Below, one piece after another: positions 18,591 to 27,731 of a stretch of 64,000 nucleotides of DNA (its first letter is position 1; the number at the start of each line of letters is the position of its first letter). The notes below the pieces were generated by a model, which worked only from the letters and a program-made list of their open reading frames with translations, was not told the DNA's origin and searched no databases. The DNA comes from an uncultured Rhodospirillaceae bacterium (GTDB taxonomy: Bacteria > Pseudomonadota > Alphaproteobacteria > Rhodospirillales > Magnetospirillaceae), in contig CAIUSV010000012.1 in the NCBI GenBank assembly GCA_903901915.1, positions 1 to 64,000 on the forward strand, written 5' to 3'. The translations under genes and the position numbers were made by a program.

Positions 18591-18652
18591 GGCCCGGCCT
18601 GGAGTTCCGGAAAAATGTCTGGCGAAATGTGGCGAATTGTCGCGCCGGAGTC

Positions 18653-18725: not shown

Positions 18726-19586
18726 ATGGAAGGGACGGGGGCCTTGGAGCAGACAGGAAAAAGCGATACCGGCGTTGCGCCTCGTGGCCTTCCGCCCCCC
18801 CGGCCGATCCGCTGGTCGTTGGCGCGCAAGGTCTCGCTGGCGCTTGTCGCCATCCTGATGTGCACCATGGTGGTGGCGGCCTTCTTCGCCTATTACAAGT
18901 TCGAGAGCGTTTACTCCTCCCTGGTGCAGTCGCGCTACAGTTTCGTTGTTTTTACCATCAAGAAGCGTGTCGAGGACAGCCTCAACCTGGGCTTCGCGCT
19001 GCGTCAGTTGCGCCAAGTGCAGGAAATCCTGGAGCGCGAGAAGCTGCGAGATCCCCAGGTCGTCGCCGTCGAGGTCTATGGCGCCAATGGCGAGATCCTG
19101 TTCGACACCGATCGTGGCGCCATCGGCACCAGGGTCTCGGACGATCTGGTGGCGGCCATCCGTGGCGGGGCCAATCAGGCGTTTGGCGCCCTCGACGAGG
19201 ATATGCTGATTGTCGGGCTGCCGCTGGTCAATACCCTGGGCAAGATCGAGGGTGGGGTGGTGCTGCGCTATCCCAGTTCCTATATCCAGCGCGGATTGGG
19301 CGGACTGCTGAGCCAGTTGAGCAAAACCGTGCTGGAGGAACTTGCCGTGTTCTCGGTGCTGGCGGTGCTGGGGCTTTACGCCCTGTTCGGCAGCGTCGGG
19401 CGCAAGCTCGGCAGCATGGAGCGCACGCTTGACGCGGTGATGTCGGTGGGCGGTCACGCGGTGGCCGAGGTCGGTGCCGACAATTTCGAGGAGCATTATG
19501 CCGAATTCATCGCCAAATCCCGCGAGGCGATGGACCACATTCGCGACGCCACCGACGAGGTCGGTCGGTTGGACCGGCTGCAATGA
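18726..19586 (+). CDS. Two-TM membrane sensor protein, first gene of the six-gene operon
   Basis: 286 residues. Layout: short cytoplasmic N-terminus, TM1 at about 36-57, an extracytoplasmic domain of about 150 residues with a PDC-like turn (VVAVEVYGANGEILFDTD), TM2 at about 208-233, and a cytoplasmic tail of about 55 residues rich in acidic residues. There is no kinase, cyclase or methyl-accepting domain, so it can sense but needs partners for output. The start was chosen downstream of the promoter at 18653-18680; ATG 18615 is the alternative. Its stop overlaps the next gene (ATGA). No named family recognised. Confidence 0.7.
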   Translation: MEGTGALEQTGKSDTGVAPRGLPPPRPIRWSLARKVSLALVAILMCTMVVAAFFAYYKFESVYSSLVQSRYSFVVFTIKKRVEDSLNLGFALRQLRQVQEILEREKLRDPQVVAVEVYGANGEILFDTDRGAIGTRVSDDLVAAIRGGANQAFGALDEDMLIVGLPLVNTLGKIEGGVVLRYPSSYIQRGLGGLLSQLSKTVLEELAVFSVLAVLGLYALFGSVGRKLGSMERTLDAVMSVGGHAVAEVGADNFEEHYAEFIAKSREAMDHIRDATDEVGRLDRLQ

Positions 19587-21688
19587 GGGGCCGGCAGATG
19601 ACGCTCGATCACACCCGTCCGCTGTTCGTCAGGTTGTTGCTGCTGGCCTTCCTGGTGTTGGTGCCCCCGGTGGCGCTGCTGGCCTACGAGGCGCTGGGGG
19701 AATTCTCCCAGGGGCTGGTGCCCGAAATGGACAAGAAGGCCGAGACGGTGGGCCATGATCTGGCCGCCAGCGTCGAGCGCGCCGTCGGCTATGGGATTCC
19801 GCTCAACCATCTCCAGGGGATGGACCAGTTCTTCGGCCCGGTCAGGGCGGCCAATCCCGAAATCCGTTATCTTGCCGTCACCGACCGCGACGGCCATATC
19901 CTGTTCCTCGACGGCATCGGCCGCGAGGTGCTGGAAGCCCATTTCGCCGTGGCCGATTTCGACGAAGGCGGCGGCAGGTCCCACAAGTCCAGTATCGGCG
20001 ATTTCTTCGATCTGGCGCTGCCGCTGGCGGGCAAGGCCGGTTCGGCCGGTCATATCCATGTCGGCATCGACAAGAATTACGTTCGCGGACTGGTGAACGA
20101 CATCATCATCGACCTGGGGGTGGTGACGCTGGTGTCGCTGCTGGTGGCGGTGGAGATCCTGCTGTTCGTGGTGACATTCAACGTCACCGGCCCGATGCGG
20201 GTGGTCGCCGCCGTCATCGATCGGGTGCGGCGCGGTGATTTCAGTCGGGTCTGCGGCGTCACCTCCGACGACGAGGTCGGCCGTTTCGTCCACGGATTCA
20301 ATGCCGCCATCCGTCTGGTCGATGAATTGTTCCGCCGTCTGTCCGCCTATATCGACGAGGTCAAGTCGGTCCATTTCGACCCCGGCGTGGTGGAGCGGGT
20401 GACCGATATCGAGTCGCGGGTGCGGTTCCTGTTCCGCTTCGCCCGTGATGGTCAGCCCGCGATCGTCAACGAGCATCAGGCCACGGATATCCGGCTGCCG
20501 CTGTTCCTGTTCGTGTTCGCTGAGGAAATTTCGCGGTCGTTCATGCCCATGTACATCCGCGACCTCTACGCCCCCATTCCCGGCCTGTCGCCCGAGATGG
20601 TGACCGCCCTGCCCATCGCGGTGTTCATGCTGTTCATCGCCGTGGTGTCGCCGTCGGCGGCGCTGACCTCGGCGCGACTGGGCAGCCGCCGGGTATTCCT
20701 GATGGGGCTGGTGCCGGCGACGGTGGGTTTTTTCATGTCGGCGTTGGCCCACAATGTCTACGACTTCATCGTGTGGCGGTCGGCGACGGCGATCGGCTAT
20801 GCCCTGGTCACCATGGCCTGCCAGGGCTATATCGCCCAGGTGTCGAAGCAGGGCAGCCGGGCCCAGGGCCTGGGGGTCTATGTCGGCGCCGTACTCACCG
20901 CCAGCGTCTGCGGCACCGGTATCGGCGGTGTCCTGGCCGAACGGGTCGGCTACCGCGCCACCTTTTCCATCGCGGCGGTCCTGGCGATCGTCGCCGGCTT
21001 GCTGATCTATCGCCTGATGGATGCCCGGCAGCCCGAGGCGGAAACCCATGCCCCCCGCAAGCGTCAATTCATCGGCCTGCTGCGGAACTGGCGGTTTTCC
21101 GCCCTGATCCTGTTCGCCGCCATTCCCAGCAAGATGGCGTTGACCGGCTTTTTCTTCTTCCTGGTGCCGCTGACCATGATGGCGCAGCCGCGTGCCGATC
21201 TTGGCGATGTGGCGCGACTGATGATGCTTTACCCGATTTCGGTGGTGCTGCTGTCGCCGCTGGCGTCGCGGCTGGCCGACCATACCGGGTGGAAGGCCGG
21301 ATTGGTGGCGGTCGGTGGGCTGATCGGCGGCGCCGGTCTGGTTCTGCCGGTGATTTCCGGCGAGACCGAGATGATCATGGCCGGCATCGTCCTGCTGGGG
21401 ATTTCCCACGGTCTGTCGGCCTCACCGCAACTGGCGATGATTCCCGACGTCTGCTGGACCGAATGCCGCAATATCGGCCAGACCAACGTCCTCGCCTTCC
21501 TGCGCCTGGCCGAGCGGGTCGGCAGCGTGGTCGGCCCGCTGTTGGCGGCGGCGTTCATTCCGCTGTACGGCTATACCGGCGCCATCGTCGCGTTGGGCGT
21601 GGTGGTGCTGGGCATGAGCATGGTCTTTGCCCTGTTGTCCTTCGCCTATGGTTCGGGCCCTCATATCGAGGCGGAGTTGGAGGAATGA
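19583..21688 (+). CDS. Sensor-HAMP-MFS transporter fusion
   Basis: 701 residues with an unusual architecture. TM1 (about 14-37) and an extracytoplasmic PDC-like sensor region (about 38-170, with LAVTDRDGHILFLDG) come first. TM2 (about 172-200) and a HAMP-like linker (about 200-250, containing DDEVGRFVHGFNAAI) follow. The rest, about 300-690, is a complete 12-helix major facilitator domain (GSRRVFLMGLVPATVGFFM; QGYIAQVSKQGSRAQGLGVYVG). A receptor front end thus appears to be joined to a transporter. ATG 19583 overlaps the previous stop; a second ATG at 19598 is possible. Substrate unknown. Next gene overlaps by four bases. Confidence 0.78.
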   Translation: MRGRQMTLDHTRPLFVRLLLLAFLVLVPPVALLAYEALGEFSQGLVPEMDKKAETVGHDLAASVERAVGYGIPLNHLQGMDQFFGPVRAANPEIRYLAVTDRDGHILFLDGIGREVLEAHFAVADFDEGGGRSHKSSIGDFFDLALPLAGKAGSAGHIHVGIDKNYVRGLVNDIIIDLGVVTLVSLLVAVEILLFVVTFNVTGPMRVVAAVIDRVRRGDFSRVCGVTSDDEVGRFVHGFNAAIRLVDELFRRLSAYIDEVKSVHFDPGVVERVTDIESRVRFLFRFARDGQPAIVNEHQATDIRLPLFLFVFAEEISRSFMPMYIRDLYAPIPGLSPEMVTALPIAVFMLFIAVVSPSAALTSARLGSRRVFLMGLVPATVGFFMSALAHNVYDFIVWRSATAIGYALVTMACQGYIAQVSKQGSRAQGLGVYVGAVLTASVCGTGIGGVLAERVGYRATFSIAAVLAIVAGLLIYRLMDARQPEAETHAPRKRQFIGLLRNWRFSALILFAAIPSKMALTGFFFFLVPLTMMAQPRADLGDVARLMMLYPISVVLLSPLASRLADHTGWKAGLVAVGGLIGGAGLVLPVISGETEMIMAGIVLLGISHGLSASPQLAMIPDVCWTECRNIGQTNVLAFLRLAERVGSVVGPLLAAAFIPLYGYTGAIVALGVVVLGMSMVFALLSFAYGSGPHIEAELEE

Positions 21689-22719
21689 GGCGGCTCCGCT
21701 TTCTGATCGCCGTCATGGTCACGCTTGCCGCCCTGGGGTGGGCCGGCACCGCCCCGGCGGCCGAGGGTCCGACGCCGGCCAGGCCTTTCCGCATCTACAT
21801 GGCGCTGTGGCGTGGCTGGGAAGACGCGGCCCAAGGGTTCAAGGACTATTTCACCAACCAGAACATCCCGGTTGAACTGATCATTCGCGACGCGGCGCAG
21901 GACAAGGCCAAGCTCAGGGAGTTCGTCGCCGAAGCCAAGAGTCTGAACGTCGATCTGGTCTTCACCTGGGGAACCACGGTCAGCGAAGAGATGCTGGGGC
22001 GTTACGACGATCCCGATACCGAATCGCATATCACCACGATTCCAGCCGTGTTCGCCATCGTGTCGCAGCCATTGGGCGGGGTGGTTCCCAGTCTGACCTC
22101 GTCGGGGCGCAACATCACCGGCACCACCTATCTGGTGCCCATGGAAACGCAGGTCAACCTGATCCAATCCTACCGGCCGGTCCGGCGGATGGGGATCGTC
22201 TACAACCCGCTTGAACGCAATTCCCAGGTCGCCATTCAGGAACTGATGGTGGTGGGGCATGCCTCCGGGTTCGAGCTGGTCACCCAGCCGGTGGAGGTGG
22301 TCGACGGCAAGCCCGTGGCGGCCAGCATTCCCGCCAAGGTGGCCCAACTGAAGGTGGCCAAGGTCGATTTCCTCTATATCCCTCCGGACACCTTCCTCAA
22401 CATCAACCGAGACACCCTTACCGGCGCGGCGCTGGCGCAGGCGATTCCCACCTTCGCCGCCGCCGAGAATCCGGTGGTGACCTCCAAGGCGATGTTCGGC
22501 GGCGTCTACCGCTACTATACCGTGGGCCAGCTTACCGCCTACAAGGCCGAGCAGATCCTGGTTCACAAGGTCAATCCGTCGGACATTCCCATCGATGCGC
22601 CTCGCCGGCTGTCGATCCTGATCAACATGCCGGTGGTTCGCCAACTGGGGCTGTATCCGCCCATGAACCTGCTGAGGCTGGCCGAGGTGATCGACCCGGC
22701 GGAAGGCAGGCCGCAATGA
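21685..22719 (+). CDS. Periplasmic ABC-type substrate-binding protein, orphan
   Basis: 344 residues with a signal peptide (about 1-27, ending APAAEG) and two-lobe binding-protein fold of the DUF534/TrpX-like family (YNPLERNSQVAIQELMVVGHASGFEL, then VDFLYIPPDTFLNINRD). No ABC permease or ATPase gene is nearby. It sits instead between the MFS fusion and a formyltransferase in a signalling operon, overlapping both by four bases. A good Shine-Dalgarno (GGAGTTGGAGGA) precedes the ATG. Likely role: presenting a ligand to the membrane sensors of this operon. Ligand unknown. Confidence 0.8.
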   Translation: MRRLRFLIAVMVTLAALGWAGTAPAAEGPTPARPFRIYMALWRGWEDAAQGFKDYFTNQNIPVELIIRDAAQDKAKLREFVAEAKSLNVDLVFTWGTTVSEEMLGRYDDPDTESHITTIPAVFAIVSQPLGGVVPSLTSSGRNITGTTYLVPMETQVNLIQSYRPVRRMGIVYNPLERNSQVAIQELMVVGHASGFELVTQPVEVVDGKPVAASIPAKVAQLKVAKVDFLYIPPDTFLNINRDTLTGAALAQAIPTFAAAENPVVTSKAMFGGVYRYYTVGQLTAYKAEQILVHKVNPSDIPIDAPRRLSILINMPVVRQLGLYPPMNLLRLAEVIDPAEGRPQ

Positions 22720-23630
22720 CCGGGAAGGCGCCCTTGCGCATCATCATCTGCACCAAACATGATCTCGCGGGCAGCCTGATCCTCAATACCCTGCTGCCGG
22801 CGATGAGCGATTGCACGGTCACGGTCCTGATGTCGGAAAAGACCCGACCGGTGGAAAATGCCGTGGCGGAACTGGCCGAGATCAAGTTCTTCGAGCGCGA
22901 CCTGCCGGTGGACACCCTGTTCCCCCTGCTGGATGCCGCCGAATCCGGAGGCACCGCGCCGCTGCTGACCTTCAAGGGGCTTGCCGCCCGTCACGGCGTC
23001 GCCATGCGTCCCATCAGCGATCTCAACGGGCCGGAGGGCGAGGCGCTGGTGCGTGATTTCGCACCGGACTTGATCATCTCCGCCCGGTTCTCTTTGATCT
23101 TCAAGCAGAACATCTACGATATCCCGCGGCTGGGTACCTACAATATCCATCCGGGGGCGCTGCCGCGCTATGCCGGGCTGTTCGCGCCGTTTCGCTGCAT
23201 GTTGGAAGGCGGGGCCAGCATCGGCTGCACGTTGCACCGAGTGGATTCCGGCATCGACACCGGCCCCGTCGTGGGCATCGGCTACCTGCCCATCGATCCG
23301 GATCGGTCGCTGTTGTGGCATGTGGTCAACACCTATCGGCCGGGTATCGACCTGTTTCTCGACCTGTTGGACCGGGTTCGCCAGGGGGCACCGGTGGCGG
23401 TCATGCCGCAGGATCGCAGCCAGCGCCGTTACGGCTCGTTGCCCGGTGCCGAGATGTTCCACGAATTCCGGGCCAAGGGGTTGAAGCTTTTCGACCCGGC
23501 CGAATACCTGGAGATTCTGTCCGGGTTCCTGACGCCGGGACAGGCGTTGCCGGTGATCATGGCTGGGTTTGGCGGGGCTGATGGTCGGATGAGCGGGCGG
23601 GGGGCATCATGCTGCTGCGTACCCGTGTAA
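22716..23630 (+). CDS. Formyltransferase of the Fmt/N10-formyl-THF family
   Basis: 304 residues. The formyl-THF catalytic motif is complete: NIHPG (Asn143, His145) followed by ALPRYAGLFAPFR, and Asp181 in VDSGIDTGP. The remainder is diverged from methionyl-tRNA formyltransferase and the tRNA-binding C-terminal domain is absent, so the acceptor is probably a small molecule such as a sugar-nucleotide amine or an amino-acid derivative. Overlaps the binding-protein gene by four bases and the phosphatase gene by 22. The last residues (CCCVPV) fall in this overlap. Cytoplasmic. Reaction class is firm, substrate unknown. Confidence 0.8.
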   Translation: MTGKAPLRIIICTKHDLAGSLILNTLLPAMSDCTVTVLMSEKTRPVENAVAELAEIKFFERDLPVDTLFPLLDAAESGGTAPLLTFKGLAARHGVAMRPISDLNGPEGEALVRDFAPDLIISARFSLIFKQNIYDIPRLGTYNIHPGALPRYAGLFAPFRCMLEGGASIGCTLHRVDSGIDTGPVVGIGYLPIDPDRSLLWHVVNTYRPGIDLFLDLLDRVRQGAPVAVMPQDRSQRRYGSLPGAEMFHEFRAKGLKLFDPAEYLEILSGFLTPGQALPVIMAGFGGADGRMSGRGASCCCVPV

Positions 23631-26413
23631 CGCTGATCGTTACCGTCACCTACTCGCTGTTGGTCGCCGGCCTTACCTTCGCCGGGCTGAAAAGCGAGGA
23701 ACTGGCGGACGAACGCTATGCCCAGGCCACCCTTAACGGCCAGCAGATCTTCTGGGACAAACTGGTCGAGAATACCCTGCAACGCCTGGACGCGGCCGCG
23801 CCGGTGATTCTGTCCAACGCCCCGATGATCGAGGCGGCGGCCCGTCACAGTCCTTCCCAGGTGCGTGAGGCGATGGCGGTGACGGCCGACGGGTTGGCGC
23901 GGCGTTCCGCCGTGGCGCGCTACGAGATCGCCGGCCTTGATGGCGAGTTGCTGTATTCCTCGCGCGGCTCGCTGTTGGAGACCGCCACGGTGGATGCGGG
24001 CACCATCCGGCTGATCGCCGAGACCGGCAAGCCGCGATCGGGCATCATGCAAGACAACGACAAGCGGTTCATCGCGGTGGAGACCCTGCCGCTGGCGGTG
24101 GCCGGCGGCCAGGTGGTGGCGGTGGCGACGATGATTTCCGACCTCCATCCGCCGCTGGACGAATTCAAGGCGTCCACCGGGTCGGACGTCTTCCTGGTCG
24201 ATCGCAGCGGCCGCATGACCGACGGGACCGGCGCCGAATTGTGGCGGATGTTCGATTCCAAGATATCGGTGCGCAAGAGCCGACTGGAAACCTGGAAGGA
24301 GGGGCACCGCTTCTTTTCGGTGGTGGTGTTCCCGTTGGGCGACGGACAGGGGCGGGTCATCGGCGCGCTGGTCAGCGCCCGGGACTCCACCGAGACCCAG
24401 GCGCGCCAGCACCAGATCCGCATGGTGGCGATCGGCGCGGTGGCGGGTTTCCTGGTGCTGGTGCTGGGGGTGTTCTCGCTGTATCTGCGCCGCTCGTTCG
24501 ACCCGCTGGACCAGGCCATCACCGTGTTGAACGCCCTGTCGCGCGGCGACACCTCGGTGACGTTGGATGTGCGCAACCAGAACGACGAGATCGGCCGCAT
24601 CGCCAGTACCGTCGGCGTCTTCCGCGAAAACGCCATCAAGATCGATCTGCTGGAGGAGCGGCGAGAGCGCCAGCGCCGCCGCCAAGAATTGTTCATCCGC
24701 CTGCAAATGCTGAAGCTGTCCGAAATGCTGGAGCAGGAAGCCCGCGAGGCGGTGCTGGACGACCTCAAGCAGATCGAGGCGCTGTCCAACCGGCCCGACG
24801 CTGCCGCGGGAGGCGAGGGCGGCGGCGGCAAGGGCGAATTGGAAGTGCTGGCGGTGGCGTTCCAGACCATGTCGTCGCGTATCCGCGAGCAGCACGAGCG
24901 CCTTGAATCCCTGATCGCCGAACGGACCCGTGATGTCGAGATTCTGCGCGAGGCGTTGCGCACCCGCGATCAGTTGGCGGCCCTGCGTCAGGAACTTGAT
25001 TTCGCCCGTGAATTGCAGCTCAGCTCGCTGCCGCAAGTGTTCCCGCCGTTCCCCGACCGTAGCGAATTCCAGATCCATGCCTCGATGGTTCCGGCCAAGG
25101 AGGTGGGCGGCGACTTCTATGATTTCTTCCTGATCAACCGCCACCACCTGGGCTTTGTCATCGGCGACGCCTCGGGCAAGGGCGTGCCGGCGGCCATGTT
25201 CATCGCCATCACCCGCAGTCTGGTCAAGGCGGTGGCGCCGCTATCGGCCACGCCGGGCGAATGCCTGGCCTTCGTCAACACCATGCTGTCGCGCGACAAC
25301 CCCCAGACCCTGTTCGCCACCTGTTTCTACGGTGTGCTAGATACCCGCAGCGGCGAAGTCGCGTTCTGCAACGCCGGCCATCCGCCACCGATGATCCGGC
25401 GCAGCACCGGCGAAGTCGAGGCCATCCGCGATGTGTCCGGCGTGGCGCTGGGGGTGATGGAGGACCTGGACTACGAGACCGGTTCCTTCCTGCTGCAGCC
25501 GGGGGACGTGGTGCATCTCTATACCGACGGCGTCACCGAGGCCCAGGATGTGGCGGACAAGCTGTACGACGAGCCGAGGTTGATGACCGAACTGGGCCGG
25601 ATCGAGGACACCGGTCCCGAGCAGGTGATTGCGCAGGTGCTGCGCTCGGTCGAGGGGTTTGTCGGCAACGCGCCGCAGTTCGATGACATCACCATGCTGA
25701 CCTTGCGCTATGACCGGGCGTCCGAGGATGCCGACGGTCCCCCCGAGCATGCGCCGCGGCTGATGTTGACCGGTTTCCAGGCGGCGGAGGCGGCGGCTTC
25801 GCCGCCCTCTGTCCCGTCTCCGCCCTCTATCCCGTCTCCGCCCTCTATCCCGTCTCCGGTCGCCGCCGCCCCGGCACCCATGCCGGTGGTTCGCGGGGTG
25901 GTGCGGCCGCCGCTGCCGAAGCGGCCGACCGGCGCTCCTGCCGCCGTTCCGCCACCGCCACCGCCACCGCCGCCGTTACCCGCTCCATCGCGATTGGCCG
26001 TGACCATCACCAACGATGTCGCCGAGCTGGAGCGATTGGCCGAGCTTGTGGACGAATTCGTCGAGAAGTCCCGCCTGCCCGAAAAGCTGTCGTTCAATCT
26101 GAACGTCTGCCTTGACGAGTTGATCACAAACATCATCTCCTATGGCTACGACGACGACCGTCAGCACGAAATTCAGGTCACTTTCAGCTACGATGGCCGC
26201 GAGTTCGTAACCGAGATCGTCGATGACGCCAACGAATACGATCCGTTCACCCAGGCGCCCGAGCCGGATCTGGATCTGGATGTGGATGACCGCCCCATCG
26301 GCGGTCTTGGCGTGTTTCTGGTCAAGGAGTTCATGGACAGTACCGATTACCGCCACGAAGACGGACGTAACACCACGACGTTGCGTAAGACGATCGAAGA
26401 ACAGGAGAGCTAG
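23609..26413 (+). CDS. Membrane sensor-HAMP-PP2C (SpoIIE) phosphatase with RsbW-like HATPase domain
   Basis: 934 residues. Order: TM1 (about 8-27); a large extracytoplasmic sensor (28-270, with VARYEIAGLDGELLYSS); TM2 (272-293); HAMP (293-346); coiled coil (347-470); a SpoIIE/PP2C phosphatase (about 475-710). The phosphatase carries the metal ligands GGDFYD near 501, GDASGKG and FDDITML near 690. A proline-rich linker (730-790) and a GHKL ATPase of the anti-sigma type (about 797-930; N box LDELITNIISYGY near 835, G box GGLGVFLVKEF near 899) complete it. It can in principle both dephosphorylate and phosphorylate the STAS protein encoded six bases downstream. Confidence 0.88.
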   Translation: MLLRTRVTLIVTVTYSLLVAGLTFAGLKSEELADERYAQATLNGQQIFWDKLVENTLQRLDAAAPVILSNAPMIEAAARHSPSQVREAMAVTADGLARRSAVARYEIAGLDGELLYSSRGSLLETATVDAGTIRLIAETGKPRSGIMQDNDKRFIAVETLPLAVAGGQVVAVATMISDLHPPLDEFKASTGSDVFLVDRSGRMTDGTGAELWRMFDSKISVRKSRLETWKEGHRFFSVVVFPLGDGQGRVIGALVSARDSTETQARQHQIRMVAIGAVAGFLVLVLGVFSLYLRRSFDPLDQAITVLNALSRGDTSVTLDVRNQNDEIGRIASTVGVFRENAIKIDLLEERRERQRRRQELFIRLQMLKLSEMLEQEAREAVLDDLKQIEALSNRPDAAAGGEGGGGKGELEVLAVAFQTMSSRIREQHERLESLIAERTRDVEILREALRTRDQLAALRQELDFARELQLSSLPQVFPPFPDRSEFQIHASMVPAKEVGGDFYDFFLINRHHLGFVIGDASGKGVPAAMFIAITRSLVKAVAPLSATPGECLAFVNTMLSRDNPQTLFATCFYGVLDTRSGEVAFCNAGHPPPMIRRSTGEVEAIRDVSGVALGVMEDLDYETGSFLLQPGDVVHLYTDGVTEAQDVADKLYDEPRLMTELGRIEDTGPEQVIAQVLRSVEGFVGNAPQFDDITMLTLRYDRASEDADGPPEHAPRLMLTGFQAAEAAASPPSVPSPPSIPSPPSIPSPVAAAPAPMPVVRGVVRPPLPKRPTGAPAAVPPPPPPPPPLPAPSRLAVTITNDVAELERLAELVDEFVEKSRLPEKLSFNLNVCLDELITNIISYGYDDDRQHEIQVTFSYDGREFVTEIVDDANEYDPFTQAPEPDLDLDVDDRPIGGLGVFLVKEFMDSTDYRHEDGRNTTTLRKTIEEQES
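25802..25855 (+). repeat. Three 18-bp tandem repeats in the proline-rich linker
   Basis: Three copies of CCGCCCTCTATCCCGTCT (one base differs in the first copy), encoding PPS(V/I)PS. They lie in the linker between the phosphatase and ATPase domains. Copy number may vary by slippage without breaking the frame. Confidence 0.8.
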
Positions 26414-26418
26414 GCCCC

Positions 26419-26748
26419 ATGGAAACCCGCGAAGAACACATCGGCGACGCCACCGTGCTGGTGCCCTTGGCCCGAGTGGACAGCGCCACCGCCAAGGCAT
26501 TCGAGGCGAAGGTGCTGGCGGTGGTCAACGCCGGCGGCCCCAAGATTCTGATTGATTTCGGCGAGCTGGACTATATTTCCAGCGCCGGTCTAAGAGTGGT
26601 CCTGGTCGGGGCGAAGATGACCCGTGGGGGCCGTAAATTCGCTCTGTGCGGCATGAAGCCCCACATCCGCGAGGTGTTCGACGTTTCCGGCTTCGCCAGG
26701 ATCTTGTCCATCTATTCCGATCGTGCCGCGGCCCTGGCGGCCATGTGA
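26419..26748 (+). CDS. STAS-domain anti-sigma-factor antagonist
   Basis: 109 residues, one STAS domain. The regulatory serine region reads DYISSAGLRV; by alignment with SpoIIAA/RsbV, Ser55 is the likely phosphorylation site. It ends the six-gene operon, six bases after the phosphatase/ATPase gene. That gene's protein carries both the phosphatase and the kinase-like domain expected to act on it. The downstream anti-sigma or other target is not in this window. A 7-bp inverted repeat (26752-26773) follows the stop but lacks a T run. Confidence 0.9.
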   Translation: METREEHIGDATVLVPLARVDSATAKAFEAKVLAVVNAGGPKILIDFGELDYISSAGLRVVLVGAKMTRGGRKFALCGMKPHIREVFDVSGFARILSIYSDRAAALAAM

Positions 26749-27326: not shown

Positions 27327-27731
27327 ATGCGTACGTTGTCGGTGTTGGTCGCGTGTGGGTTGATGTTGAGCGTTTCGGCCTGTGCCGTTCCGGTCGACCC
27401 GTTCGGTGCCCGCTATGTGGGCGGTGGCCATGCGGCGAACTATGCCGGCGACTATCGCGGCGAGTCTCGCCACCAGCACGATCGTCCCCAGGCGTCGGCG
27501 TCGCGATCTTATGCCCAGCCGGCGGATCGTCGCCAGCAGCAGACCGCCGCTCGTCAGCCGAGCCAGCCTCACGCCTCGCAGTCCCATACCCCGCAGTCGG
27601 CATCCTATCAGGTGCCGCACCGGCAGTCGCAGCAGACCCAGGCCCCCGCCGCTCGTGGCGGCCACGGTGGTCGGTCGGACGGCCGCGACACCGAGAGCTA
27701 CCGTAACCACGACTACCGGGGCAGGTCATGA
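27327..27731 (+). CDS. Small lipoprotein, Gln/His/Ser-rich
   Basis: 134 residues. The start ATG follows GAGGAGG and gives a lipoprotein signal with lipobox LSVSAC. The mature part is low-complexity and hydrophilic (Gln, Ser, His, Arg), with no family recognised. It would be anchored in the outer or inner membrane. The stop overlaps the start of the CheY-like gene (ATGA), so the two are probably made together. An earlier in-frame ATG at 27270 would put residues before the signal peptide and was rejected. Confidence 0.66.
   Translation: MRTLSVLVACGLMLSVSACAVPVDPFGARYVGGGHAANYAGDYRGESRHQHDRPQASASRSYAQPADRRQQQTAARQPSQPHASQSHTPQSASYQVPHRQSQQTQAPAARGGHGGRSDGRDTESYRNHDYRGRS

What the first reader, a model, noticed from the sequence alone, without database searches (positions are those of the whole stretch)
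18726..26748. Six-gene operon joining sensing, MFS transport, a binding protein, a formyltransferase and a partner-switching phosphatase/STAS pair
Five of the six genes overlap the next by 4-22 bases and the sixth follows after five bases, so they form one translation-coupled unit behind a plausible promoter. Three of the products share a two-TM layout with a PDC-like extracytoplasmic region. A fourth is a periplasmic binding protein that has no ABC partner. The output side is a PP2C (SpoIIE) plus GHKL ATPase and its likely STAS target. A formyltransferase sits in the middle. This combination is not one I know; it may sense a periplasmic small molecule, move it and control a partner-switching cascade.
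Basis: partly seen in the sequence, partly recalled or inferred. Interest (0 to 1): 0.85.

Follow-up and report, generated by a model that had tools for sequence, protein, structure and literature searches.

The report
Sensor–transporter–binding-protein module driving partner switch
A six-gene operon in a Magnetospirillum-like bacterium carries a three-gene sensing module (a sensor, a sensor fused to a drug-exporter-like transporter, and a binding protein) that recurs as a unit in many other bacteria, sometimes feeding a phosphatase/kinase switch as here and elsewhere sitting inside the gene clusters of bacterial injection machines.

Summary
The six genes are there, at 18726-26748: four junctions overlap by 4, 4, 4 and 22 bases, one leaves 5. 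The claimed promoter was not found. The conserved core is a triad: g1 (Cache/PDC sensor), g2 (Cache-HAMP-MFS), g3 (ABC_sub_bind protein without ABC partners). Of 80 relatives of g2 kept, 63 lie outside the window's family group; g1 is upstream in 62 of 63 (the miss is at a contig edge), g3 downstream in 63 of 63. Outputs differ: T6SS genes in 29 of 63, PP2C phosphatase in 18 of 63, type III secretion genes in a few loci. A formyltransferase of g4's own subfamily recurs in 16 of 63, in none of the T6SS loci, and is missing in 6 of 28 family loci: a real but optional part. In the window the output is an HsbR/HsbA-like partner switch with catalytic residues intact. Best reading: a periplasmic small molecule presented by g3 is sensed by g1/g2, whose exporter-like MFS domain moves or reads it, and this sets phosphorylation of STAS Ser55. 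Ligand, coupling and target are inferred.

The parts
18726..19586 (+). g1: two-TM Cache/PDC sensor, 286 aa, no output domain (an in-frame ATG at 18615 is possible; the close relative L083 aligns from about 18726)
   Evidence: model pLDDT 84; Foldseek WalK/DctB/DcuS/CitA sensor domains; no Pfam family
19583..21688 (+). g2: Cache sensor - HAMP - MFS, 701 aa
   Evidence: Pfam MFS_1 3.7e-37, HAMP 17.8 bits, below cut-off; model pLDDT 89, pTM 0.85
19703..20077 (+). g2 extracytoplasmic Cache domain (about residues 41-165)
   Evidence: secondary structure; hhalign to g1 98.5%
20183..20332 (+). g2 HAMP-like segment (about residues 201-250; Pro204 in 42 of 42, Gly218 in 40 of 42 aligned rows)
20480..21652 (+). 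g2 MFS domain (about residues 300-690); exporter-like fold; conserved membrane charges E314, E315, R399, R641, E644
   Evidence: Foldseek NorA/MdfA/VMAT; conservation
21685..22719 (+). g3: ABC_sub_bind (PF04392) periplasmic binding protein without ABC permease or ATPase among the six
   Evidence: Pfam 8.2e-24; profile matches 3lkv, 6hni, 3lft
22716..23630 (+). g4: formyltransferase with N143, H145, D181 conserved; optional member
   Evidence: Pfam 6.4e-17; PDB matches Fmt/ArnA/WlaRD; residues; presence counts
23609..26413 (+). g5: membrane sensor - HAMP - PP2C (SpoIIE) - GHKL kinase (HATPase_c_2), 934 aa
   Evidence: Pfam; PDB matches 3eq2, 3es2, 6k4e, RsbW
25139..25711 (+). g5 SpoIIE/PP2C domain; five aspartates conserved in 43 of 43 homologues (the first of them lies just before the Pfam stretch)
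26009..26389 (+). g5 GHKL (RsbW-like) domain; N-box E and N and three G-box glycines conserved in 22 of 22
26419..26748 (+). g6: STAS anti-anti-sigma-type protein, 109 aa
   Evidence: Pfam STAS 1.1e-13; PDB SpoIIAA-type chains, best 2.1e-8
26581..26583 (+). codon of g6 Ser55, aligned with a serine of the SpoIIAA 'mdSSGL' motif; conserved in 33 of 33 homologues
   Evidence: that this serine is the phosphorylated one in SpoIIAA is recalled

Best explanation
The operon is a membrane signalling unit made of a widespread input triad and a partner-switch output. SHOWN by sequence: g1 (Cache sensor), g2 (Cache-HAMP-MFS) and g3 (periplasmic binding protein) form one conserved unit that occurs with different outputs; g1 and g2 carry related sensor domains and are fused in some genomes; the MFS part is the best conserved part of g2 and is modelled with a drug-exporter-like fold and conserved membrane charges; g5 and g6 have the residues needed for a phosphatase/kinase acting on a STAS protein. 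INFERRED: g3 binds a small molecule in the periplasm and presents it to the g1/g2 sensor complex; the HAMP segment links the sensor state to the MFS domain, so that transport and sensing are coupled; the state of the complex is read by the similarly built membrane sensor of g5, which shifts the balance between its PP2C and GHKL activities on Ser55 of g6; g6 then binds or releases a target that is not in the operon (a sigma factor, anti-sigma factor or diguanylate cyclase, as for HsbA). The formyltransferase g4 makes or modifies a molecule in this circuit. In other lineages the same triad sits with T6SS or T3SS clusters.
For: Triad: g1 upstream 62 of 63, g3 downstream 63 of 63 loci outside the family group; 29 of 29 other family loci. 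Fusions of g1 and g2: L114, L118, L140 (3 of the 63) and L076, L077. Sensor homology g1-g2 98.5%, g1-g5 92.4%. Cache fold, exporter-like MFS, MFS mean column conservation 0.56 against 0.39 for the sensor. Catalytic residues: PP2C 43/43, GHKL 22/22, STAS 33/33, formyltransferase N and H 28/29 and D181 27/29. Outputs: T6SS 29, PP2C 18, formyltransferase 16 of 63; T6SS marker proteins confirmed by Pfam; g4 homologues score E 8e-40 to 4e-91 and lie within 1.1 kb of g2 in 15 of 16, whereas the next best formyltransferase of the own genome matches g4 only at 3e-13. In L105 the triad lies with CesT, SseC and YscJ genes, an ECF sigma factor, PP2C, STAS and GHKL. Tree: T6SS rows form one group with one unclassified row; the window family is one clade, on the same side of a supported branch as 15 of 18 PP2C rows.
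Against: No ligand, transport, phosphorylation or target is measured. The Pfam HAMP match of g2 is below its cut-off, and only 20 of 42 rows keep the Glu of the second HAMP motif. The 29 T6SS loci are nearly one clade, so they are not 29 independent events. 11 of the 63 loci show none of the scored output genes (some of these contigs are short). L121 has both PP2C and a VgrG-like gene (no other T6SS marker), so the two kinds of output are not cleanly exclusive. g5 as reader of g1/g2 rests on neighbourhood and partial sensor homology. In the window genome no T6SS sheath gene was found, so the secretion link says nothing direct about this organism.
Confidence: 0.55

Rival explanations
1. The MFS domain is no longer a transporter but the receptor itself, as in UhpC: it binds the ligand handed over by g3, and the Cache and HAMP parts only pass the state to partners.
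For: Invariant membrane charges and the high conservation of the MFS part fit a binding cavity; none of the 29 T6SS loci has the formyltransferase with the triad. UhpC as an MFS sensor is recalled; one search gave only listings of papers that mention it.
Against: The fold is nearest to drug/proton antiporters and keeps the arginine R399 (42/42) and glycines G444 and G448 (42/42) of MFS motifs B and C, which suggests transport; the motif names and their meaning are recalled.
Confidence: 0.3
2. The triad is chiefly a signal-regulated exporter or importer (nutrition or detoxification), and the partner switch only reports on it; co-location with T6SS and T3SS clusters reflects shared mobile islands.
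For: MFS core and a binding protein are transport parts; some homologues lie on large plasmids (22 plasmid records with a match, 9 over at least 80% of g2).
Against: The sensor pair is as constant as the transporter; the T6SS linkage is kept across Vibrionaceae, Oceanospirillaceae and Rhodobacter-type families in similar positions.
Confidence: 0.2
3. The six genes are unrelated functions that happen to be co-transcribed; only g5-g6 form a working pair.
For: g4 is missing in 6 of 28 family loci; all 29 family loci share the murI neighbour, so family synteny alone could be inherited position.
Against: Overlapping genes; triad conservation across families and in MAGs labelled Myxococcota and Thermodesulfobacteriota; g1::g2 fusions; recurrence of g4 with the triad and PP2C in other families in several arrangements.
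Confidence: 0.05

Closest known systems
HsbR-HsbA (Pseudomonas aeruginosa) and CrsR-CrsA (Shewanella) partner switches (PMC6482189, abstract and passages seen)
   Same: PP2C and GHKL kinase domains in one protein acting on a STAS-type antagonist
   Different: HsbR/CrsR carry a receiver domain; g5 has a membrane sensor with HAMP instead and sits in an operon with the triad; no target gene among the six
SiaABCD (PMC7647112, abstract start and two passages seen; PMC8457831 and PMC7278518 listing only)
   Same: SiaA is a membrane protein with HAMP and PP2C; g5 matches the SiaA model weakly (63.6 bits, cut-off 700)
   Different: the kinase is a separate protein (SiaB) and a diguanylate cyclase (SiaD) is co-transcribed; here the kinase is fused and no cyclase is among the six
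UhpB-UhpC, an MFS protein used as sensor (recalled)
   Same: MFS fold coupled to signalling
   Different: as recalled, UhpC has no Cache or HAMP part and its partner is a histidine kinase
TorT-TorS and LuxP-LuxQ, binding protein plus sensor (recalled)
   Same: orphan periplasmic binding protein next to membrane sensors
   Different: output there is a histidine kinase; here an MFS protein and a PP2C switch
Flanking genes of VflT6SS1 of Vibrio fluvialis (PMC5371669, passages seen)
   Same: [quoted passage not shown] our Vibrio furnissii locus L116 has the triad beside TssA-C
   Different: in the passages seen they are flanking genes with no role proposed; the sensor g1 and the wider conservation are not mentioned there

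Membership tests
Partner-switching system (PP2C / GHKL kinase / STAS) | PP2C metal-binding aspartates | tested here: met
   five aspartates 43 of 43 homologues
Partner-switching system (PP2C / GHKL kinase / STAS) | GHKL N-box and G-box residues | tested here: met
   E, N and three glycines 22 of 22; RsbW match
Partner-switching system (PP2C / GHKL kinase / STAS) | STAS phospho-acceptor serine | tested here: met
   S55 in 33 of 33, aligned to the SpoIIAA SSGL motif
Partner-switching system (PP2C / GHKL kinase / STAS) | phosphorylation-dependent exchange of partners | not testable with these tools
   needs biochemistry
HsbR type | N-terminal receiver domain | tested here: not met
   Pfam shows HAMP, SpoIIE and HATPase_c_2 (and a weak PAS_4), no Response_reg in g5
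SiaABCD | separate SiaB kinase and SiaD cyclase in the operon | tested here: not met
   kinase domain fused in g5, no GGDEF among the six products
ABC importer | permease and ATPase with the binding protein | tested here: not met
   none among the six; the neighbour clusters of at least 4 loci that I identified include none, but some clusters were not named
Drug/proton antiporter-like MFS | 12-helix MFS fold of the NorA/MdfA type | tested here: met
   predicted model; Foldseek TMt about 0.8 over about 400 columns
Drug/proton antiporter-like MFS | transport activity | not testable with these tools
   needs assays
UhpC-type MFS sensor | partner membrane histidine kinase | tested here: not met
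   no histidine kinase among the six
T6SS/T3SS regulator (for the window organism) | secretion genes in the same genome | tested here: not met
   T6SS: no TssB (PF05591) in the own genome, control rang in 1 of 14. T3SS: only a weak test, no PF16697 match, but its control rang in 4 of 14 genomes that include non-T3SS organisms

The most novel reading that the evidence does not exclude
The Cache / Cache-HAMP-MFS / binding-protein triad is a new class of transmembrane signalling device in which sensor domains gate an exporter through a HAMP joint: cells export a self-made small molecule (in the formyltransferase branch an N-formylated one; in another branch perhaps one made by the alpha/beta hydrolase and histidine phosphatase) and sense its return through the binding protein, and use this to switch partner-switching cascades and contact-dependent injection machines (T6SS, T3SS).
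Probability: 0.22. Interest if true: 0.88.

Novelty: new variant of a known kind. Interest (0 to 1): 0.7.

Why it matters
It gives a common, testable input module to loci now annotated piecemeal as 'MFS transporter', 'ABC transporter substrate binding protein' or not at all, including inside T6SS and near T3SS clusters, where the signals that switch the machines on are often unknown (general knowledge; a 2023 review of T6SS regulation, PMC10482370, holds none of six terms looked up: MFS, major facilitator, substrate-binding, partner switch, HAMP, periplasmic binding). A HAMP segment joined to an MFS domain would also be an unusual coupling of sensing to transport.

Tried and rejected
Rejected or corrected: (1) the strict six-gene unit (g4 optional, outputs exchanged). 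(2) The promoter claim: 0 consensus sites, 1.5 expected; alphaproteobacterial promoters may not fit this pattern. (3) The CheY-like gene at 27728 as part of the operon: it lies 979 bases downstream and gave no kept hit (40 bits or more) in the 29 other family loci. (4) ABC importer: no permease or ATPase among the six. (5) Phage origin: no match of g2 in the phage collection. (6) A T6SS in the window genome: no TssB.

Led nowhere: Rfam (0 hits) and tRNA search (0); literature searches with combined terms (0 papers each; 1 unrelated paper; listings only, none opened). The view that the triad is not described rests in an open-licence library; one search listed 12 of 45 papers, of which two were looked into (PMC5371669, one passing mention; PMC10482370, no term found).

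Limits: T3SS markers came from few reference proteins, so T3SS is probably undercounted: 1 of the 63 (L105), while L066 (YscD), L071 (CesT), L074 (FlhB/YscU and FliP families, which flagella share) and L036 (CesT as annotated) are outside those 63. The PP2C count for the window family (4 of 17) is an artefact of my filter on the match end, as PP2C and GHKL are fused there; use instead. One search kept the best 80 of 90 relatives. 'Family group' means the 17 loci with g2 identity of 46% or more; I did not check the family of each of the other 63. Gene calls of the home-made caller are wrong in places (antisense ORF over g3 in the window, antisense ORFs in L107), so the counts use all open frames instead.
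Full report
WHAT IS THERE. Six genes on the + strand run from 18726 to 26748: g1 18726-19586, g2 19583-21688, g3 21685-22719, g4 22716-23630, g5 23609-26413, g6 26419-26748 (for the start and the g2/g3 junction). Junctions overlap by 4, 4, 4 and 22 bases and then leave 5. Divergent upstream lies murI. Downstream are a CheY-like gene (979 bases away) and, on the other strand, rodA and pbp2 (these two names from the look of the translations, not from a family search). Pfam gives MFS_1 and a weak HAMP for g2, ABC_sub_bind for g3, formyl transferase for g4, HAMP-SpoIIE-HATPase_c_2 for g5, STAS for g6 and nothing for g1. A consensus scan found no sigma-70-like promoter (0 against 1.5 expected).

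SENSORS. AlphaFold models built from alignments of loci give g1 a long helix, a Cache/PDC fold and a second long helix (mean pLDDT 84), with Foldseek matches to the sensor domains of WalK, sporulation kinase D, DctB, DcuS and CitA. g2 is modelled with high confidence (pLDDT 89, pTM 0.85) as helix, Cache-like domain, helix, HAMP-like segment, linker and MFS. Profiles of g1 and g2 align over 250 columns (98.5%), those of g1 and the g5 N-terminus over 158 columns (92.4%). A related PP2C protein in a distant locus carries a recognised Cache domain (L071 dCache_2).

TRANSPORTER PART. The MFS domain of g2 is nearest in fold to NorA, MdfA and VMAT, which are exporters or vesicular antiporters (recalled). 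It is the best conserved part of the protein (mean column conservation 0.56, against 0.39 in the sensor and 0.42 in the HAMP segment; 42 rows). Charged residues in predicted membrane helices are kept: position 314 acidic in 41 of 42, R399 42 of 42, R641 42 of 42, position 644 acidic in 42 of 42. The HAMP assignment is moderate: Pro204 42 of 42 and Gly218 40 of 42, but Glu231 in only 20 of 42, and Pfam is below its cut-off.

FAMILY LEVEL. A g2 match at E 1e-20 or better was found in 35 of 55 genomes of the window's family, own genome included (a few match only the MFS part); in the same genus in 13 of 16 other genomes. In the 29 other genomes with near-full-length matches the order murI, g1, g2, g3, [g4], g5, g6 recurs: g1-g2-g3 29 of 29; g5 28 of 28 and g6 26 of 26 where the contig goes on; g4 absent in 6 of 28 (L037-L041, L049) and with an internal gap in one (L044). 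All 29 share the murI neighbour, so these are mostly one inherited locus.

BEYOND THE FAMILY. A search of 398 genomes of the phylum found 12 with a match at E 1e-40, own genome included; at most two candidates per genome were scored and some of the 12 match only in the MFS part, so this is a rough figure. A scan of the species-genome collection kept the best 80 of 90 relatives. Of the 80, 17 form the window's family group (g2 identity 46% or more) and 63 do not (37% or less). In the 63, g1 lies upstream in 62 (the exception, L131, begins at a contig end) and g3 downstream in 63; in three (L114, L118, L140) g1 is fused to g2, as also in L076 and L077 from another search. This near-perfect linkage defines the triad as the functional unit.

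OUTPUTS CHANGE. T6SS genes lie beside the triad in 29 of 63; each of the 29 has at least two T6SS markers, and none has PP2C or a g4 homologue by my thresholds. The reference proteins behind the labels were confirmed by Pfam for TssA, TssB, TssC, TssK, TssF, TssM and a ClpB/ClpV-type AAA protein, Hcp, VgrG-type domains and DUF6931. Among the other 34, PP2C is present in 18 and g4 homologues in 16; alpha/beta hydrolase plus histidine phosphatase in 3. L121 has PP2C and a VgrG-like gene without other T6SS markers. T3SS genes are near the triad or its relatives in L105 (CesT, SseC, YscJ, with an ECF sigma factor), L066 (YscD), L071 (CesT), L036 (CesT as annotated) and probably L074, where the export proteins belong to families that flagella share. 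L067 has STAS and GGDEF genes next to the triad. A tree of g2 (80 rows, quick method, several long branches) groups the T6SS rows with one unclassified row, makes the window family one clade, and puts 15 of 18 PP2C rows on the same side of a supported branch as the window family. So T6SS linkage may have arisen once or a few times and been kept; 29 loci are not 29 events.

FORMYLTRANSFERASE. g4 is a homologue of Fmt and sugar N-formyltransferases; the residues of the Asn-x-His motif are kept in 28 of 29 homologues and Asp181 in 27 of 29, the rest being gaps (that these are the catalytic residues is recalled from Fmt). The 16 homologues beside the triad outside the family group score E 8e-40 to 4e-91 against the g4 profile and lie 15 to 1040 bases from g2 in 15 of 16 (6 kb in L130), whereas the next best formyltransferase of the window's own genome matches g4 at only 3e-13: this is a distinct subfamily tied to the triad. 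It occurs with Tistlia, Aquibaculum, Geminicoccus, Skermanella, an Azospirillum and Roseomonas-type bacteria, before the triad, inside it (L145: g1 g2 g4 g3), after it (L117) or convergent to it (L130). Its substrate is unknown.

SWITCH. g5 keeps the PP2C aspartates (43 of 43 homologues) and the GHKL N-box and glycines (22 of 22); g6 keeps S54 and S55 (33 of 33), S55 aligning with the SpoIIAA SSGL motif. The nearest studied design is HsbR-HsbA and CrsR-CrsA (PMC6482189, abstract and passages), with a membrane sensor and HAMP in place of the receiver domain. According to those passages the STAS-type protein there binds FlgM, HsbD or the kinase domain that holds RpoS; here no such target lies among the six genes.

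MECHANISM PROPOSED. A periplasmic small molecule is bound by g3 and presented to a g1/g2 sensor complex; g2 couples this state through its HAMP segment to an exporter-like MFS domain; the complex informs g5, which sets the phosphorylation of g6 Ser55. Only the parts list, their linkage, predicted folds and intact residues are shown; coupling, ligand, direction of transport and target are inference.

LITERATURE. Within the open-licence library, searches combining these terms led to one relevant remark: the left junction of VflT6SS1 of Vibrio fluvialis, identical in V. [quoted passage not shown] A 2023 review of T6SS regulation holds none of the six terms looked up (PMC10482370, term look-up only).

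VERDICT. A real, conserved and, within these searches, undescribed input module joined to a known kind of output. I file it as a new variant of a known kind; the triad itself could deserve more if its mechanism is shown.

Noticed in passing
L033, L072, L073, L108-L113, L116 and others: The T6SS clusters that hold the triad share a small protein of family DUF6931 (PF22011) next to VgrG; the family was clustered in 29 of the 100 loci examined.
   Followed up: partly
L100, L103, L126, L034: In another set of relatives the triad (or an MFS-only relative in L034) is accompanied by an alpha/beta hydrolase and a histidine phosphatase, another possible enzyme set for the same circuit.
   Followed up: partly
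L105, L106, L107, L124, L130: A second, parallel set of sensors (g1-like and/or g2-like without a recognised MFS) and a PP2C gene lies beside the triad; three of the MFS-less proteins were given to Pfam and matched no family.
   Followed up: partly
L067:11092-14175: Triad next to a STAS gene and two genes with GGDEF or GGDEF-EAL domains, suggesting a c-di-GMP output in that genome.
   Followed up: no
L044:11337-11958: The formyltransferase homologue in this close relative has an internal gap, so it may be decaying; six genus mates (L037-L041, L049) lack it.
   Followed up: no
L036: On the Nitratidesulfovibrio vulgaris plasmid pDVUL01 an ABC_sub_bind-type gene, a 987-aa MFS protein with a long N-terminus and a CesT chaperone gene lie together.
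   Followed up: no
L074, L067, L035, L078: A family of about 285 aa recurs near the triad in four loci (cluster 25); the L074 member has no Pfam match.
   Followed up: no
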